From positions 1 to 32,955 of the forward strand of contig JALWYX010000079.1 in the NCBI GenBank assembly GCA_027078415.1: a DNA stretch of 32,955 nt, given 5' to 3'. The translations under genes and the position numbers were made by a program. Below the pieces are notes generated by a model, which saw only the letters and a list, made by a program, of their open reading frames with translations, was not told the DNA's origin and made no database searches. This document shows, piece by piece, positions 10,214 to 31,607 of the stretch. This DNA comes from Thermoanaerobaculia bacterium (GTDB lineage Bacteria > Acidobacteriota > Thermoanaerobaculia > JALWYX01). How positions within the stretch are numbered: position 1 is the stretch's first letter; the number at the start of each line of letters is the position of its first letter.

Positions 10214-10240
10214 TGTAGATTTTTTTGAATTAGAAGCATG

Positions 10241-10269
10241 AAGGCTGGCTTTGCCAGCCTTTTTTTTTG
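10241..10269 (+). terminator. Intrinsic terminator
   Basis: Perfect 9-bp stem AAGGCTGGC / GCCAGCCTT with a TTT loop (10241-10261), followed by a long T-run. It closes the 8861 transcription unit and separates it from the PKD/glycosyltransferase cluster. Confidence 0.93.
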
Positions 10270-10317: not shown

Positions 10318-13300
10318 ATGATAAAAAAAGTAAATGCTATACTCTTGATACTACCTTCTTCCTTTTTATTTGGTAAGGTATGTACTGAGGGGAGTCCTGG
10401 TTATGGTGTATGTGGTTCGTTGAGTGGTAGTGATTTGTTGGATTGTAGGAGTGCTTTGTGGGGAGAGTTGAAGCCTGTTGATGAGGGTCAGATTCCTGGT
10501 TTTCCTAGTAGTAAGGATCGTGATACTACTGCGTATACTGGTAATCAGGTTGCTGATTCTAATTATCCGTTGTGGCAGGATGTGGAGGTACGTGGTGGTA
10601 GGTTATATAGTGCTTATTGGGGAGGTTTTCACATATGGGATATAAGTGGTAGTAGGGCTGTTGATCCTGAGAAGTTGGTTGATATAGATGGTAGGGCTTT
10701 TTGTGCTGTGAATAATTGTGTTTGGCCTCCTGGTGGTGAGGGTGATAGTTATGTGCAGGATTTGAGTGCTCCTGTGGGTAGTGATTTATTTGTGTTTACT
10801 GGGTTAGAGGTTGGTACGTTTGTGTTTAGTTACGATGGAGGTGGTAATGTTTCATACAAGTATCAGAACGATGCGTTGGATGGTCGTTCTGTGTGGGTTG
10901 GTGATATAGGTGGTGTTTTGTATGCGTTTATTGGTAGTGATGTTGGTGGTGTTTCTGGTGTGCATTTGGTTAATTTGGGTATAGCTGGTGGTTTAGGTGG
11001 TTGTTATCAGAACGATTTGGTTGTTGGTGGTAGTTGTGGTGGTGCTTATAGGGGTGAGGTTATAAATTTAGCTGGCAAGTATGTTGATGGTATTAGGTTT
11101 GGTGGTTCTGTGTATTTAGCTGTTAGTACGGGTATGTTTACCGATCCTGCTCGTGGTGTGTGGGTGTATAAGGTGGATGATCCTGAGAATCCTCAGTTGG
11201 TTGTTAGGTTGCATGGTAATGTGGATGTTGTGAGTAATGGTATAGCTTTTTGGGAGTATGGTGGTGATGTTTATTTAGGTGTGTATGTTGTTCGTAATGG
11301 TAGTGATGAGTATTTGGATATATTTAGGATGACGCAGTGTTTGGATGATGGTGTTTGTAGTGGTGCTAGTTTAGTTAGTAGTACTCGTGCTGAGTTAGCT
11401 TCTTCTAGTGCGTTTATGTTTGTGTCGTTTTCGTATGCTGAGGGTGGGGTGCCGTTTTTGTATTTAGGTAATGAGACTAAGTGTCATAGTGGTTTACAGC
11501 AGGAGTTTTTGTTTGATGTAAGCGATCCTTATAATCCTCGTGAGATTTCCCCTAAAGGTACTTATACTTACGTAGATGGTGATCCTGGGAGTATAGATAC
11601 CGTTGATTATTGGGGCTGGTACTACTCTTTAAACTCAACTGGATTTTCGCAGGTGATGCCTCGTAAAGCACGTTTTAATGGTAGATATCTCTACAGAGCA
11701 GCTCTTACTATACTAGATATACATGAGTGGGTGGGTAATACTCCTACCATCAATATTTCTGGACCAACTTCTGGGTACGCTGGAGATACTTTAACTTTTA
11801 CGGCCAATGCTGTTGGGTGTACCCCTGTTACTAATGGTTGGAGTTGGAACGTTGATGGTGGTACTATAGTAGGATCTAGCAATGGTTCTAGTATAGACGT
11901 TTATTGGAACAGTATTGGTGTAAAAAACGTTACTGTTACTAACAGTGGTTGTAGTAATGCTCAAGGAGCTATTCAGGTTACTATCAATGATCCTGCACCT
12001 TCTATAGGAGGGATATCGGTTTATCCTAATCCGGCTTTACAGTGTCAGTCTGTAACTTTTGATGCTCAGAATGTAACAGGTCAACCTCCTATAACTCTTT
12101 CGTGGGAGGTCAAAGACTCTTCTAACAATACTGTTGCCACAGCTGGTAATGTTGATCCGTTTGTATGGAATACTTCTGCTTCTACAGCTGCAGGCAACTA
12201 TACTGTTACTCTTACAGCTACCAATTCTGCTGGAAGTGATAACAAGAGTGCTAATGTTACTGTGAACGCTCTTCCAACTTTGTCTGTTGATACACCTGTT
12301 ATAGTTAATCAAGTCAACAATGTGGTAGAGTTTTCTGTAAATTCTACCGGAGCTACCGAGTGGTGCTGGGATTTTGGTGATGGTTCTACAGGGTGTCCTT
12401 CAACTGGATGGGTCTCTGATCCTTCTACTGGTCCAAATCCGACTCATACATATTCTAACCTCGGAACTTATACTGTTTCTGTGTATGTTCGTAACTGTAT
12501 AACGGGTCCTATTCAGAGTGGCACTGTAGATGTGACTATTACTTCTCTAGAACCTCTAAACGCTGAGTTCCAAGCTACTAATATATTTTGTTCGAGTGCG
12601 GCTTGTTCTGCTAGTGTGGGACAAACTATAAATTTTCAAGATAGTAGTACTGGGTCCCCTGAATTCTGGGATTACGATTGGGATGGAGATGGAATTTTCG
12701 AAGATTCTAACAATAGTTCTCCTGTGACTTCCCATGTATACAACAGTGAAGGCAATTATACTCCGAAGCTACGTGTTAGAAGAGGATCTGCCAGTGATGA
12801 GTTTACTCATGTTATGATAATTGTTTCCACTCCTAATCCTCCTTCTATATCTGTAACTGGTCCTTCGAATGGTGTAGTAAATCAAACTCTTGATTTTACA
12901 GCTTCTGCTTCAAACTGTACTCCTGATAATAATGGTTGGAATTGGAACGTTGACGGAGGAACTATTGTTGGATCTTCCAATGGATCTAACGTTTCTGTAA
13001 AATGGTCTACCCCTGGTACCAAAAATATCTCTGTTACAAACAGTGGCTGTGGTAATGCTCAAGGATCAAAGGTGGTTACTATCTCCTCCGGAGGAGGTGG
13101 TGGAGGAGGTAACGGTGTAGTTACTATATCTGGTCCTACAACTGGTACTGTTGGAGAAGAACTGAGTTTCACTGCGAACTATCAAAACTGTGTACCTGCT
13201 ATAGGAGGATGGCAGTGGGATACAGATGGAGGTGATATAATAGGGCCTTCTACTAATTCTTCTATTAAAGTTAAGTGGAACAGTGCAGGTAGCAAGACTT

Positions 13301-15063
13301 TATCTGTGTTTAACGAAGGATGCGGTTCAGATTCTCATAATGTTAATATTACTCCTAGTGGAGGAGATGGGAATGGAAGTAGTATACAGGTAACTGGTCC
13401 CACTTCGGGTAGTATTGATCAGATACTTTCCTTTACAGCTACTGCTCAAGGATGTACTCCTGACGTCTCAGGGTGGAGCTGGAATGTAGGTGACGGTACT
13501 ATCGTATCGCAGGCTGCTTCTGGCAACAGCTCCACTATAGATGCTAAATGGTCGTTTGCAGGCAATAAAACTGTTACTGTAACTAATAGTGAGTGTGCTG
13601 GAGCTGTTGGGGAAATAAATGTATCTATAGATGCAAACGGAGGCGGCGGAAACGGAAATGAAGCCGAAATAGTAGTTCCTTGGTTGGCAGTTTCTAACCT
13701 TGCCCAAGGTTTACCACAGCAAAGCGATTTGTATATATACAATCCGTCAAATGAAAGTATGACTGTAGATATAGTTTTTAGAAAAAGAGGTAATCCCTAT
13801 CAAAATCCTCCAACCTCTACTGTTACGCTTATGCCAGGTGAGACTAAGATACTTTACAATGTTCTGGAATCGGTCTTTGGACTTGTAAACATCTCAGGGT
13901 TGATAGAGGTGTACCCACAAAACAGTTCAATAGAACCCGTAGTTACTTCATTTAATCGAACTATGAAAGGAGAAGATGAATTCTGGCAATCTGTACAGTC
14001 TCTTTCTTTTAGTAAGTTTACTTCCTATCTTTACAATATCGAAACTAATCCTAAACTTTACCTTATAGGTTTGAATGATAACGATAGTAGGATAAGCTAT
14101 TTTGGAATAACTAAGCCGAATGATGACGGTGCTATATGTACTATAAGGGCTTATTCTAGAGACGGGTCTTTACTTGGAACTGTAACCAAGAGTTTTGGTA
14201 ATCAGGTACAGCTACAACCGAAAGATGTAAGAGAACAATTGAATGTAACAGGTGAAACAGATTATATGGTTGAAATAGAAATAGAGGAAGGTGCACCTTT
14301 GTTGGCTTATGGCGCTAACGTTAGAAAAGGTACTGAAGATCCTTCGTTTTTAATGCCAGGCAGAACTAACAGTTCCACTCAATACCTTGTTGGTTTAATT
14401 CATAGACCAGGTTTGAACAACGCGAATTGGATAGGTGATGCGGTAGTTGCAAATATTACAGGCTATCCTATGGATGTTTACTTCGAGTTTATTCCTATAG
14501 GTGTAAATCAAACATCTGTTACTCACGGTCCTGTTACTTTGGCTCCACGTCAAACTTTACGTATAGGTGGAATATTATCCCAGTATTTCAATAACGAGGA
14601 CGCTGTTGGGGTGTTAAAAGTAACTAGTCCTGGAGTTAATGGAGTTTACCCGATTGTTCAAGGTGAGAGTTTTGACGACCAAGGTGTCCTTAATAGGTAC
14701 GGACAGTTCATACCAGCTATGACTGATGAAGATGCAGCTACTTTTGGAAAGAAACATATACTTGTAGGTTTGCGTTACGGCCAAGGATACAGAAGCGTAG
14801 TTTGGATATATAACTCTTCTGAAGAGCCGGCAAGTTGCCAATTAGTATATAAAGCACCGGATGGTTCTGTTATAAAAAGTATTAATTATCAGGTACCTGC
14901 TGGTAAGGTAAGACAAATAGGAGCTTTGCAGCACGATTTGGGGGATTATGAAGGTGTGTTTACTCTAGAGATACAAGTTGGATCTGGTAAGATACTAGCT
15001 ACAGCGCAAGTTGTTAGAGATTCCAACAACGATCCTGCTTTTGTGGTAGGTAAGACTAGATGA
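10318..15063 (+). CDS. Giant PKD/Ig-repeat surface protein
   Basis: 1581 residues with a signal peptide (VNAILLILPSSFLFG). Layout: about 20-470, a cysteine-rich (ten Cys) domain with LVIVD/beta-propeller-like strands; about 476-558, a repeat with paired cysteines (CTPV...GWSW...SGC); about 560-655, an Ig-like domain; about 653-743, a PKD domain with the classic CWDFGDGSTG; about 745-838, a PKD-like domain with DYDWDGDGIFED; about 841-1105, three more Cys-pair repeats joined by glycine-rich linkers (one has seven Gly in a row); about 1116-1581, four blocks of the type seen in secreted proteins of Acidobacteriota (PWLAVSNLAQGL, YLVGLIHRPG, ILVGLRYGQG). There is no sortase or PEP-CTERM-like tail. 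Many N-x-S/T sites are present. Adhesion or a surface-layer role is inferred. The ATG at 10318 has only a weak ribosome site. The front third differs sharply in codon use. The glycosyltransferase genes start 5 bases downstream. Confidence 0.85.
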   Translation: MIKKVNAILLILPSSFLFGKVCTEGSPGYGVCGSLSGSDLLDCRSALWGELKPVDEGQIPGFPSSKDRDTTAYTGNQVADSNYPLWQDVEVRGGRLYSAYWGGFHIWDISGSRAVDPEKLVDIDGRAFCAVNNCVWPPGGEGDSYVQDLSAPVGSDLFVFTGLEVGTFVFSYDGGGNVSYKYQNDALDGRSVWVGDIGGVLYAFIGSDVGGVSGVHLVNLGIAGGLGGCYQNDLVVGGSCGGAYRGEVINLAGKYVDGIRFGGSVYLAVSTGMFTDPARGVWVYKVDDPENPQLVVRLHGNVDVVSNGIAFWEYGGDVYLGVYVVRNGSDEYLDIFRMTQCLDDGVCSGASLVSSTRAELASSSAFMFVSFSYAEGGVPFLYLGNETKCHSGLQQEFLFDVSDPYNPREISPKGTYTYVDGDPGSIDTVDYWGWYYSLNSTGFSQVMPRKARFNGRYLYRAALTILDIHEWVGNTPTINISGPTSGYAGDTLTFTANAVGCTPVTNGWSWNVDGGTIVGSSNGSSIDVYWNSIGVKNVTVTNSGCSNAQGAIQVTINDPAPSIGGISVYPNPALQCQSVTFDAQNVTGQPPITLSWEVKDSSNNTVATAGNVDPFVWNTSASTAAGNYTVTLTATNSAGSDNKSANVTVNALPTLSVDTPVIVNQVNNVVEFSVNSTGATEWCWDFGDGSTGCPSTGWVSDPSTGPNPTHTYSNLGTYTVSVYVRNCITGPIQSGTVDVTITSLEPLNAEFQATNIFCSSAACSASVGQTINFQDSSTGSPEFWDYDWDGDGIFEDSNNSSPVTSHVYNSEGNYTPKLRVRRGSASDEFTHVMIIVSTPNPPSISVTGPSNGVVNQTLDFTASASNCTPDNNGWNWNVDGGTIVGSSNGSNVSVKWSTPGTKNISVTNSGCGNAQGSKVVTISSGGGGGGGNGVVTISGPTTGTVGEELSFTANYQNCVPAIGGWQWDTDGGDIIGPSTNSSIKVKWNSAGSKTLSVFNEGCGSDSHNVNITPSGGDGNGSSIQVTGPTSGSIDQILSFTATAQGCTPDVSGWSWNVGDGTIVSQAASGNSSTIDAKWSFAGNKTVTVTNSECAGAVGEINVSIDANGGGGNGNEAEIVVPWLAVSNLAQGLPQQSDLYIYNPSNESMTVDIVFRKRGNPYQNPPTSTVTLMPGETKILYNVLESVFGLVNISGLIEVYPQNSSIEPVVTSFNRTMKGEDEFWQSVQSLSFSKFTSYLYNIETNPKLYLIGLNDNDSRISYFGITKPNDDGAICTIRAYSRDGSLLGTVTKSFGNQVQLQPKDVREQLNVTGETDYMVEIEIEEGAPLLAYGANVRKGTEDPSFLMPGRTNSSTQYLVGLIHRPGLNNANWIGDAVVANITGYPMDVYFEFIPIGVNQTSVTHGPVTLAPRQTLRIGGILSQYFNNEDAVGVLKVTSPGVNGVYPIVQGESFDDQGVLNRYGQFIPAMTDEDAATFGKKHILVGLRYGQGYRSVVWIYNSSEEPASCQLVYKAPDGSVIKSINYQVPAGKVRQIGALQHDLGDYEGVFTLEIQVGSGKILATAQVVRDSNNDPAFVVGKTR
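11744..13630 (+). repeat. Four Cys-paired Ig/PKD-like repeat units inside the surface protein
   Basis: Protein-level repeats starting near 11744, 12838, 13117 and 13381. Each opens with a G-P-[TS]-[ST/N]-G strand, has an early C-[TV]-P, a central G-W-x-W and ends near [NS]-x-[GE]-C. The two cysteines per unit probably form one disulfide. Units 1 and 2 share WNVDGGTIVGSSNGS but differ at many synonymous sites, so the duplication is old and protein-constrained. Units 2-4 are contiguous; unit 1 is separated from them by Ig and PKD domains. Confidence 0.75.
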
Positions 15064-29657: not shown

Positions 29658-31481
29658 TCACTTTCTGGGTCTTGTAACTCTAGCTTTTGTCGAGTGTCGA
29701 GACTTAGTTGAACTTTGCTTTAAGATCGACTTTTTCCTTGGATAGTGTGAGTGCTTCCATGAGGAAGAGGAGGGGTTGAGTAGGGAGTTTTTTATTTTCT
29801 TATTTTTTCTAGAAGAACGTTTAATGACGTTTTTAACAGGTGATCTTTTGTTAGAAACAGGTTTAGAAGAGATTGTATATCTGCGAGGGTAGTCTTTAGA
29901 AATGGTTGTAGAAGGAGCTCTGTATCTACTATTTTTTATCTTGCTATTTCTATTAGGTATAGTTGTTATCTTTCTTATTCTAGTATCTTTCTTAGGTTTT
30001 GTTAAAAGAGATCTAGTTGTGCGAGAAGTGTCCGATTTCACTCTTCTTGCTGGCTTTGTGCCTAAGATGTATGTTGTGTTTTGTCTAGCTGGTTTTGTTA
30101 CTATTTTAAATTCGTCTTTTCTAGTAGAAGTTATTATGCCAGGACCATCTGTTTTACCTGGTCTTGTTGCTATTATAGAACGTATTCTATCTGTTCTATC
30201 TTCTTTGAACAATCGTGTTACGTTTACGATATTTGTCCGACCACTTCTTTCCACGATTTTCCTGGGGGTTAGCTTAAGTATTCTATTTTTCTCTACTACA
30301 AATCTTGTGTCTGTTAGTAATAACCCTTTTGAATTGCCTGCTATAAGACGGTTTTTTATTACTTTGCCTGGTCTGGTATAGAGTGCTAATCTTGGATGGT
30401 CTATGTGATTTATATCTACGAATACCCAGATATCTACGTTGACATGGGGGTAGTAATGCCAGTCGAACCAGCCGTGGATACCCCAGTTAACGTGAACGTT
30501 GTAGTTGTGCCAGTACCTACGGAGATAGAACCCTATAGGACACCAACCTACGTAGTAGTCTCCCCAGTACCAATATACCCAGGCGGGAGCGTACACGTTA
30601 CCTGGAACCCATACCCATCCCCATCCAGGTATATAATCCCAAACTCCGTAATGATGGGTAATCCAACCCCAAGGTTCATACGGTACCCAAGTTAGTCCCC
30701 AACTGGTTGGTATCCATCGACCGTTGTAGTAAGGTCTCCATGAAGTAGATACTTCTGTGGGCACCCATACCCATCGATCGTCTATGTATTCCCATTCTCC
30801 AAATTTGTCTAACTCGTATAGGTACGGATCGTTAACTTCCGATATCTGGCGATCGGTATTGTTGTAATAGATGGTAGAAGGTAGATTGTTTTCTACCCAT
30901 ATTGCAAAACTAGGATAATGAAAATTTATCTTTTGAGGAGGGTTGCTACTGTTTACAGTAAATGTTTTCCTAAAACCTATTACAATAGATCCGTAATCTG
31001 AAGATAGTTCTCCTCGTCCTTCAATAGAAGTAGCTGTTGTAGCACCATAGCTTGATTCTACCAAAAATCTACCTTCAGTTAATGGATAAAAATTTGCCTG
31101 CGGTGTTTTTATTACAACTTCATCTTCCAGCTCAGATATAAGAATATATATTTGACCTCTATGGAGATCAATTTCTGTCACCTCTAGAGGAGAATATCGA
31201 GATAAAGTAACTTCTGTATTACTGTCAATCGCTACTACTGTTCCTCCATTTGTGGGAATTACTATTATTGCCTTTCCGTTGTATCTACTACTTGTAATTG
31301 TATCCCCTGGTAATACAGGATAGTTTACTTCTACTCTTTCTTTTTTTAGTTTGTTGTCTGTTATGTAAACGTTACCTACTACCTCTTTTATATATGCTAA
31401 TGGAGGTATATTTTTAGCAAAAAGAGCATTGCTACTTATTAAAAAAGCTAATAGGTAAAGATTTTGTGTTACTTTGCTCAT
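29658..31481 (-). CDS. FecR domain and W/Y-rich (DUF6600-like) exported protein with a basic tail
   Basis: 607 residues from ATG 31481, chosen for the GAGGTG ribosome site just upstream (31492-31487) and the signal peptide NLYLLAFLISSNALFA. About 20-190: a FecR-type beta domain (GDTITSSRYNGKAIIVIP, TEVTLSRYSPLEVTEIDL). About 220-370: a tryptophan/tyrosine-rich stretch with repeated W-x-P-Y and G-x-W blocks (WRPYYNGRWIPTSWGLTWV, YEPWGWITHHYGVWDY, GWGWVWVPGNVYAPAW), like DUF6600 proteins of Acidobacteriota. About 420-607: a very Lys/Arg/Ser-rich, low-complexity tail (RKKSILKQSSTKSRHS), probably disordered and able to bind acidic polymers. Role unknown. It is the first gene of the minus-strand cluster. 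Confidence 0.85.
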   Translation of the reverse strand: MSKVTQNLYLLAFLISSNALFAKNIPPLAYIKEVVGNVYITDNKLKKERVEVNYPVLPGDTITSSRYNGKAIIVIPTNGGTVVAIDSNTEVTLSRYSPLEVTEIDLHRGQIYILISELEDEVVIKTPQANFYPLTEGRFLVESSYGATTATSIEGRGELSSDYGSIVIGFRKTFTVNSSNPPQKINFHYPSFAIWVENNLPSTIYYNNTDRQISEVNDPYLYELDKFGEWEYIDDRWVWVPTEVSTSWRPYYNGRWIPTSWGLTWVPYEPWGWITHHYGVWDYIPGWGWVWVPGNVYAPAWVYWYWGDYYVGWCPIGFYLRRYWHNYNVHVNWGIHGWFDWHYYPHVNVDIWVFVDINHIDHPRLALYTRPGKVIKNRLIAGNSKGLLLTDTRFVVEKNRILKLTPRKIVERSGRTNIVNVTRLFKEDRTDRIRSIIATRPGKTDGPGIITSTRKDEFKIVTKPARQNTTYILGTKPARRVKSDTSRTTRSLLTKPKKDTRIRKITTIPNRNSKIKNSRYRAPSTTISKDYPRRYTISSKPVSNKRSPVKNVIKRSSRKNKKIKNSLLNPSSSSWKHSHYPRKKSILKQSSTKSRHSTKARVTRPRK

Positions 31482-31607
31482 TTTTTCACCTCTATATCTT
31501 TCCACGCTTCTACTTATATTATTACGCAATATGTGTGCCATTTACCTAGACCTATTTAGTTTTGGTATTATTTAATTAAAGTTAAAAGTTTTGTAGTTGA
31601 GGTTCTT

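What the first reader, a model, noticed from the sequence alone, without database searches (positions are those of the whole stretch)
10370..11520. Front third of the giant surface protein uses almost only T- or G-ending codons, with a sharp boundary
From about 10370 to 11520, within one uninterrupted frame, Glu is GAG, Lys is AAG and Gln is CAG throughout (I saw no GAA, AAA or CAA), Ser is mostly AGT, Gly mostly GGT and Leu mostly TTG. Before 10370 (signal peptide) and after about 11520 the gene returns to mixed use with many AAA, GAA, TCT and GGA codons. The switch coincides with the end of the cysteine-rich propeller-like domain. Possible causes: an imported domain, gene conversion among paralogs, or a local strand-biased mutation or selection process. 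The purine/pyrimidine pattern (C to T and A to G on the coding strand) would fit deamination of exposed non-template DNA, but the GGT-over-GGG preference does not fit this fully.
Basis: partly seen in the sequence, partly recalled or inferred. Interest (0 to 1): 0.75.

Follow-up and report, generated by a model that had tools for sequence, protein, structure and literature searches.

The report
G/T-biased block inside surface-protein gene
One 1.15-kb stretch inside a large bacterial surface-protein gene, and nowhere else found in its genome, has had nearly every optional C and A on its coding strand turned into T or G, enough to shift the protein's amino acids too; it looks like the scar of strongly one-sided DNA change, but why it stops so abruptly is not known.

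Summary
Observation confirmed and sharpened. Codons 18-400 (window 10369-11517) of the 1581-codon gene 10318-15063 end in G/T 91% of the time (rest of gene 63%); GAA/AAA/CAA 0 of 33, CTN Leu 0 of 30. It is a flat block with edges resolved to roughly 10 codons. In 1.11 Mb of the same genome nothing resembles it (211 bits against at most 19). Two reader claims fail: the right edge lies about 70 residues INSIDE the propeller-like domain, and there is no paralogue. New: amino acids in the block, but not in the rest of the domain or the PKD repeats, are displaced along the direction expected from C>T plus A>G on the coding strand (first of 33 homologues, about 5 sd), and third positions fit "transitions from the host's own codon usage" better than a free new base composition. 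So the composition is a footprint of strand-asymmetric transitions under protein-level selection, not host codon optimisation or a foreign domain. The family is confined to the host's class; block and domain tail attach at the same place in the tree; no biased donor was found. Confinement to one block is unresolved: mosaic replacement from an unsampled biased homologue (about 0.4) or a local transcription/R-loop-type process (about 0.35). GGT excess fits neither cleanly.

The parts
10318..15063 (+). Gene of 1581 aa: signal-peptide-like N-terminus, propeller-like domain (about residues 30-470), PKD-type repeats, C-terminal region
   Evidence: ORF; PKD_4 E=8e-33, PKD E=9e-25; relatives align over the propeller-like domain and PKD part
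10240..10262 (+). Intrinsic-terminator-like hairpin between the upstream gene and this one; suggests the gene has its own promoter
   Evidence: consensus scan; weak evidence
10318..10368 (+). Signal-peptide codons with ordinary usage (AAA, ATA, CTC, CTA, TCC), left of the block
   Evidence: G/T3 = .41
10369..11517 (+). The G/T-ending block, codons 18-400
10831..10869 (+). Small patch inside the block where ordinary codons cluster (TAC, GGA, TCA, TAC, AAC)
   Evidence: 5 of the 11 non-NTA exceptions within 16 codons, p = 0.003 by permutation
11518..11727 (+). Last part of the propeller-like domain (residues 401-470), ordinary codons; the edge is inside the domain
   Evidence: homologous and conserved in relatives; G/T3 .62 for codons 411-470
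11728..15063 (+). PKD-type repeats and C-terminal region, ordinary codons

Best explanation
The block carries the footprint of strong, long-lasting strand-asymmetric transitions (C>T and A>G on the coding strand) that acted on a host-like ancestral sequence while selection kept the protein working; this step is supported by the data (I put it at about 0.75). How it came to be confined to 1.15 kb is inferred: most likely the block is a mosaic tract, a piece of the same gene from an unsampled relative or replicon where the gene lived under that pressure, swapped into the middle of the host gene, so that the edges are recombination edges and not domain edges. A local process at this spot is nearly as likely.
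For: Flat G/T3 of .85-.96 over 383 codons with abrupt edges, as expected of a replaced tract and not of a decaying gradient. Uniqueness in the genome. Amino-acid displacement along the C>T/A>G direction: slope .225, r = .81, first of 33, others mean .001 sd .042, and absent from the rest of the domain (-.045) and the PKD part (.016); the index of residues with G/T-type codons is z = 4.4 in the block and normal in the tail. Third positions: transitions from host usage, 2 parameters, lnL -192.6, against free composition, 3 parameters, -194.4; without Gly -141.0 against -155.8; purine:pyrimidine ratios unchanged in Val, Ala, Pro, Thr, Ser4 and Ile. The block is more divergent than the tail (identity ratio .66, lowest of 33; end branch 1.74 against a median of .42 in the block.67 against .23 in the tail).
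Against: No donor found: family members only in the host's class (28 of 149 class genomes; 8 of 396 genomes sampled over the phylum, all of the same class), none of the relatives whose reading frame could be scored is G/T-biased, nothing in plasmids, phages or viral contigs, no close relative in 85,000 species genomes by peptide scan. Block and tail have the same tree position. The GGT excess (p = 2e-10) and AGT excess (p = 1e-5) are not predicted by synonymous transitions; with Gly included, 'host usage times a base tilt' (3 parameters) fits better, lnL -184.1. No edge repeats (14% by chance). I know of no prokaryotic genome with 100% GAG/AAG/CAG (own knowledge).
Confidence: 0.42

Rival explanations
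1. Local process: the promoter-proximal part of this transcript forms stable R-loops (or the coding strand is otherwise single-stranded here), and C>T and A>G changes pile up on the exposed coding strand; rising G and falling C make the R-loop more stable, a self-reinforcing loop.
For: Same tree position of block and tail; third positions keep the host's purine:pyrimidine ratios and ATA preference; leading- and lagging-type genes of the host differ in the same direction (about .57 against .42 G/T3), with a weak 5'-to-3' decline in both sets (.61 to .57.46 to .40); GC skew about .6 in the block; GG-type G4 motifs 7.8 per kb against 1.8. A>G and C>T deaminations are favoured in single-stranded DNA (PMC3269015).
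Against: Flat plateau with sharp edges; no other gene scanned shows it; GGT excess; the genome-wide gradient is about 0.04-0.07, not 0.3. PMC2031905 argues that skew trends across bacteria disfavour simple cytosine deamination as the general cause. Motif density and skew may be consequences, not causes.
Confidence: 0.35
2. Selection on codons or mRNA: the block is written for translation speed, low mRNA structure or another RNA-level property.
For: The block RNA folds more weakly than host-codon versions of the same protein (-22.5 against -27.1 kcal/mol per 120 nt); tRNAs with C-starting anticodons for Glu, Lys, Leu and Arg exist.
Against: Ribosomal-protein genes of the host do not use these codons (GAG .43, AAG .36, GGT .46); folding is no different when the block's own codons are shuffled; amino acids are shifted too; CTT and TCT are avoided although they end in T.
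Confidence: 0.1
3. Import of a complete foreign domain from an unrelated lineage, or gene conversion among paralogues.
For: Sharp composition step.
Against: Edge inside the domain; no paralogue; family confined to the class; tree position shared with the tail.
Confidence: 0.05
4. Assembly chimera or population-variable cassette joined by the assembler.
For: Draft genome in 80 contigs; contig ends are enriched in G/T-skewed sequence (11 of 138 beyond the interior 99% level), one of them inside another gene with G/T-ending codons (C35 end).
Against: One uninterrupted frame homologous to relatives across both edges; contig-end enrichment may be poly-T and intergenic sequence.
Confidence: 0.08

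Closest known systems
Replication/transcription strand asymmetry of bacterial genes (G and T excess on leading/coding strands; PMC2031905)
   Same: Same direction: G over C and T over A at third positions on the coding strand; the host's leading-type genes show it weakly
   Different: Confined to 1.15 kb inside one gene, far stronger (.91 against about .57), sharp edges
Mitochondrial single-strand deamination gradients (A>G and C>T, PMC3269015)
   Same: Same two transitions, mostly at third positions
   Different: Those are gradients over a whole molecule tied to replication; here it is a block in a bacterial chromosome
Mosaic genes from homologous recombination (pneumococcal pbp type; own knowledge)
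   Same: Sharp edges inside a gene, in-frame replacement of part of a domain
   Different: Donor not found; the codon dialect is more extreme than any prokaryotic genome known to me
Diversity-generating retroelements (own knowledge)
   Same: Locally concentrated change in a surface-protein gene, adenines affected
   Different: No reverse transcriptase in the genome; C as well as A affected, mostly synonymous, 1.15 kb long

Membership tests
Strand-asymmetric transition footprint (C>T, A>G on coding strand) | C and A depleted, T and G enriched at synonymous sites of one strand | tested here: met
Strand-asymmetric transition footprint (C>T, A>G on coding strand) | Purine:pyrimidine ratio at four-fold sites unchanged | tested here: inconclusive
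   Unchanged in Val, Ala, Pro, Thr, Ser4; violated in Gly, p = 2e-10
Strand-asymmetric transition footprint (C>T, A>G on coding strand) | Amino-acid shift in the predicted direction, only in the affected segment | tested here: met
Mosaic / horizontally replaced segment | Abrupt edges and uniform interior | tested here: met
Mosaic / horizontally replaced segment | Segment and flanks have different phylogenetic positions | tested here: not met
   Both lie on the branch between the two main groups; the tail has only 68 columns, so power is low, and a donor from the host's own unsampled order would look the same
Mosaic / horizontally replaced segment | Identifiable donor with the same codon dialect | tested here: not met
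Diversity-generating retroelement target | Reverse transcriptase in the genome | tested here: not met
   RVT_1 search, 0 matches, controls positive
Gene conversion among paralogues | Another copy in the genome | tested here: not met
Host translational optimum | Highly expressed genes use the same codons | tested here: not met
   S10-region ribosomal genes
R-loop hotspot | RNA:DNA hybrid at the locus | not testable with these tools
   only GC skew and G-cluster density
Beta-propeller / LVIVD repeat family | Significant match to a propeller profile or confident fold | tested here: inconclusive
   LVIVD matches one relative at E = 0.0045 and the window protein not at all; single-sequence model pLDDT 35

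The most novel reading that the evidence does not exclude
A bacterial chromosome contains a sharply bounded, gene-internal segment that is persistently hypermutated on one strand (C>T and A>G on the coding strand), reshaping a surface-protein domain while selection preserves its fold.
Probability: 0.3. Interest if true: 0.85.

Novelty: new variant of a known kind. Interest (0 to 1): 0.58.

Why it matters
Strand asymmetry is normally a weak, chromosome-wide property. A block this strong and this sharply bounded inside one reading frame either records a gene swap with a lineage whose codon usage is more extreme than any described to my knowledge, or shows that strand-specific mutation can be focused on about a kilobase of a bacterial surface gene. 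Either can be tested directly by sequencing close relatives.

Tried and rejected
Whole-genome NNK-run search: in the own genome it hits the block, one contig end (C35) and, apparently, antisense of Lys/Glu-rich genes; over the class it is non-specific and was dropped. The C35-end gene start (YfhO-like by eye; the Pfam YfhO search of the genome gave only sub-threshold hits elsewhere) ends 95% of 58 codons in G/T, but its Ser and Leu codons differ (TCT, CTT) and it scores only 15.9 bits, within the shuffles. Edge repeats: not significant. Inverted repeats around the block: none of 24 nt or more. RNA fold: nothing beyond base composition. Diversity-generating retroelement: no reverse transcriptase. 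Structure prediction from a single sequence: pLDDT 35, unusable. Contig-end enrichment in G/T skew: real but confounded by poly-T and intergenic sequence. A quick tree placed block and tail on different sides, but this vanished once long-branch rows were removed.

Full report
WHAT WAS CHECKED. The gene 10318-15063 (+) encodes 1581 aa. Codons 18-400 (window 10369-11517) have third-position T .645, G .269, A .068, C .018, against T .497, A .246, G .132, C .124 in the codons from 401 on. All 15 Glu, 8 Lys and 10 Gln codons end in G; Gly is GGT in 54 of 61, Ser AGT in 24 of 34, Leu TTG/TTA in 30 of 30. The two-edge likelihood fit puts the edges at codons 17-21 and 400-410, and the interior is flat.

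HOW UNUSUAL. In about 1.11 Mb of the host genome (1001 ORFs) a codon-dialect score gives 211 bits for the block and at most 18.9 elsewhere, with shuffles reaching 23. The score was trained on the block itself, so its absolute height is inflated; the gap to everything else is the point. Scanned for any within-gene change of third-position composition, with nothing trained, the block is first of 705 genes, G = 143, next 47. The genome as a whole has ordinary replication-type strand asymmetry: G/T3 about .55-.65 for genes on one strand of a contig and about .40-.45 for the other, with a weak 5'-to-3' decline inside genes. The block goes in the same direction but is far beyond it.

WHERE THE EDGES LIE. 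Relatives of the domain occur in 28 of 149 sampled genomes of the host's class (the count includes the host) and nowhere else in 396 genomes sampled over the phylum. In these relatives the domain continues through the residues equivalent to 401-470 of the window protein ('DYWGWYY ... YLYRAA ... LDIHEW'), and the best relative aligns over residues 45-922, across the edge. The right edge is thus inside the domain and not at its end. The propeller-like label is plausible (LVIVD repeat in one relative, E = 0.0045) but not proven; a single-sequence model was unusable.

WHAT THE BLOCK LOOKS LIKE AS EVOLUTION. (a) Third positions: a two-parameter model that starts from the host's leading-type codon usage and converts C to T (87%) and A to G (73%) fits better than a three-parameter free base composition (lnL -192.6 against -194.4; without Gly -141.0 against -155.8). 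Purine:pyrimidine ratios in Val, Ala, Pro, Thr and Ser4 boxes and the ATA preference of Ile stay those of the host, so the sequence seems to remember host-like codon usage. The exceptions are real: Gly is GGT far more than expected (p = 2e-10) and Ser AGT (p = 1e-5). A>G also turns GAT and AGT codons into GGT, and AAT into AGT, which explains part but not all of this; with Gly included a host-usage-times-tilt model fits best (-184.1). (b) Amino acids: relative to 32 relatives, Gly and Val are up and Thr, Ala, Pro are down in the block. The displacement follows the change expected from C>T plus A>G on the coding strand with r = .81 and slope .225; the 32 relatives scatter around zero with sd .042, maximum .073; the rest of the same domain (-.045) and the PKD part (.016) show nothing. 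A C>G plus A>T model correlates almost as well (r = .75), so the amino acids show enrichment of G and T more firmly than the exact exchange. At first and second positions C is clearly depleted, A hardly. (c) Rate: the block is unusually divergent relative to the domain's tail (identity ratio .66, lowest of 33). (d) Tree: with long-branch rows removed, block and tail both attach on the branch between the two main groups of the family; the tail has only 68 columns, so this is weak.

WHAT THAT EXCLUDES. Host translational optimum: ribosomal-protein genes use ordinary codons. mRNA structure: nothing beyond composition. Paralogous gene conversion: no second copy by protein or DNA. Reverse-transcriptase-driven diversification: no reverse transcriptase. 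A foreign domain from an unrelated lineage: the edge position and family distribution speak against it. Deep single-step editing is also unlikely (inference): third positions are about 80% converted but the amino-acid displacement is only about a fifth of the one-step flux unit used, so the changes must have accumulated under selection.

MECHANISM. Supported: a footprint of strand-asymmetric transitions, restricted to the block. Inferred: why it is restricted. A flat interior with abrupt edges is what a swapped tract would look like, so I favour mosaic replacement from an unsampled relative or replicon in which the gene was under such pressure (0.42). But no biased relative was found, and the block keeps host-like codon memory and tree position. 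A local process at the promoter-proximal part of the transcript, for example R-loop-assisted change of the exposed coding strand (GC skew about .6; G-cluster density four times the rest), is nearly as likely (0.35). Its weak points are the plateau and the sharp edges. A>G and C>T are the deaminations favoured in single-stranded DNA (PMC3269015), but skew trends across bacteria have been argued to disfavour simple cytosine deamination as a general cause (PMC2031905), so I do not claim the chemistry.

HOST. The window lies in a draft genome of 1.96 Mb in 80 contigs; its nearest held relatives are of the same class only. Best named MurA matches include an Acidobacteria bacterium (47% identity) and Aminicenantes, so a deep acidobacterial lineage is likely (inference).

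VERDICT. A real, statistically overwhelming and, in this genome, apparently unique feature with a specific evolutionary signature and an unresolved cause. I rate it a new variant of a known kind (strand-asymmetric composition), with a modest chance of something new.

Noticed in passing
G000 contig C35 18671-18893 (L024): Start of a YfhO-like membrane-protein gene, cut by the contig end, ends 95% of 58 codons in G/T; a YfhO-like gene also opens contig C68, whose first 18 codons are mostly G/T-ending before ordinary usage resumes. Different Ser/Leu codons from the block in the window.
   Followed up: partly
G000 contig ends (138 ends): Contig ends are enriched in G/T-skewed sequence: 11 of 138 exceed the interior 99% level. 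Could be poly-T and intergenic sequence, or a sign that such segments break the assembly.
   Followed up: partly
L065 (G000 C72 1-20000): A contig with mostly one-strand genes (type IV pilus pilM/pilN, secretin, M4 peptidase with PKD) has the strongest ordinary G/T3 bias in the sample (.61-.72), well above other leading-type genes.
   Followed up: no
window 11796-13629: PKD-type repeats in the same gene are about 77% identical at DNA level between copies 1098 bp apart, suggesting repeat duplication or conversion in the C-terminal part.
   Followed up: no
window 10831-10869: A patch of ordinary codons inside the block (5 of 11 exceptions within 16 codons, p = 0.003).
   Followed up: partly
L048 11167-11258 (G000 C34): A tRNA-Sec gene is predicted, so the organism may use selenocysteine.
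   Followed up: no
window 29661-31541 (-): The DUF6600 protein gene has the second-strongest within-gene third-position shift in the sample (codons 220-375, C3 .31 against .14).
   Followed up: no
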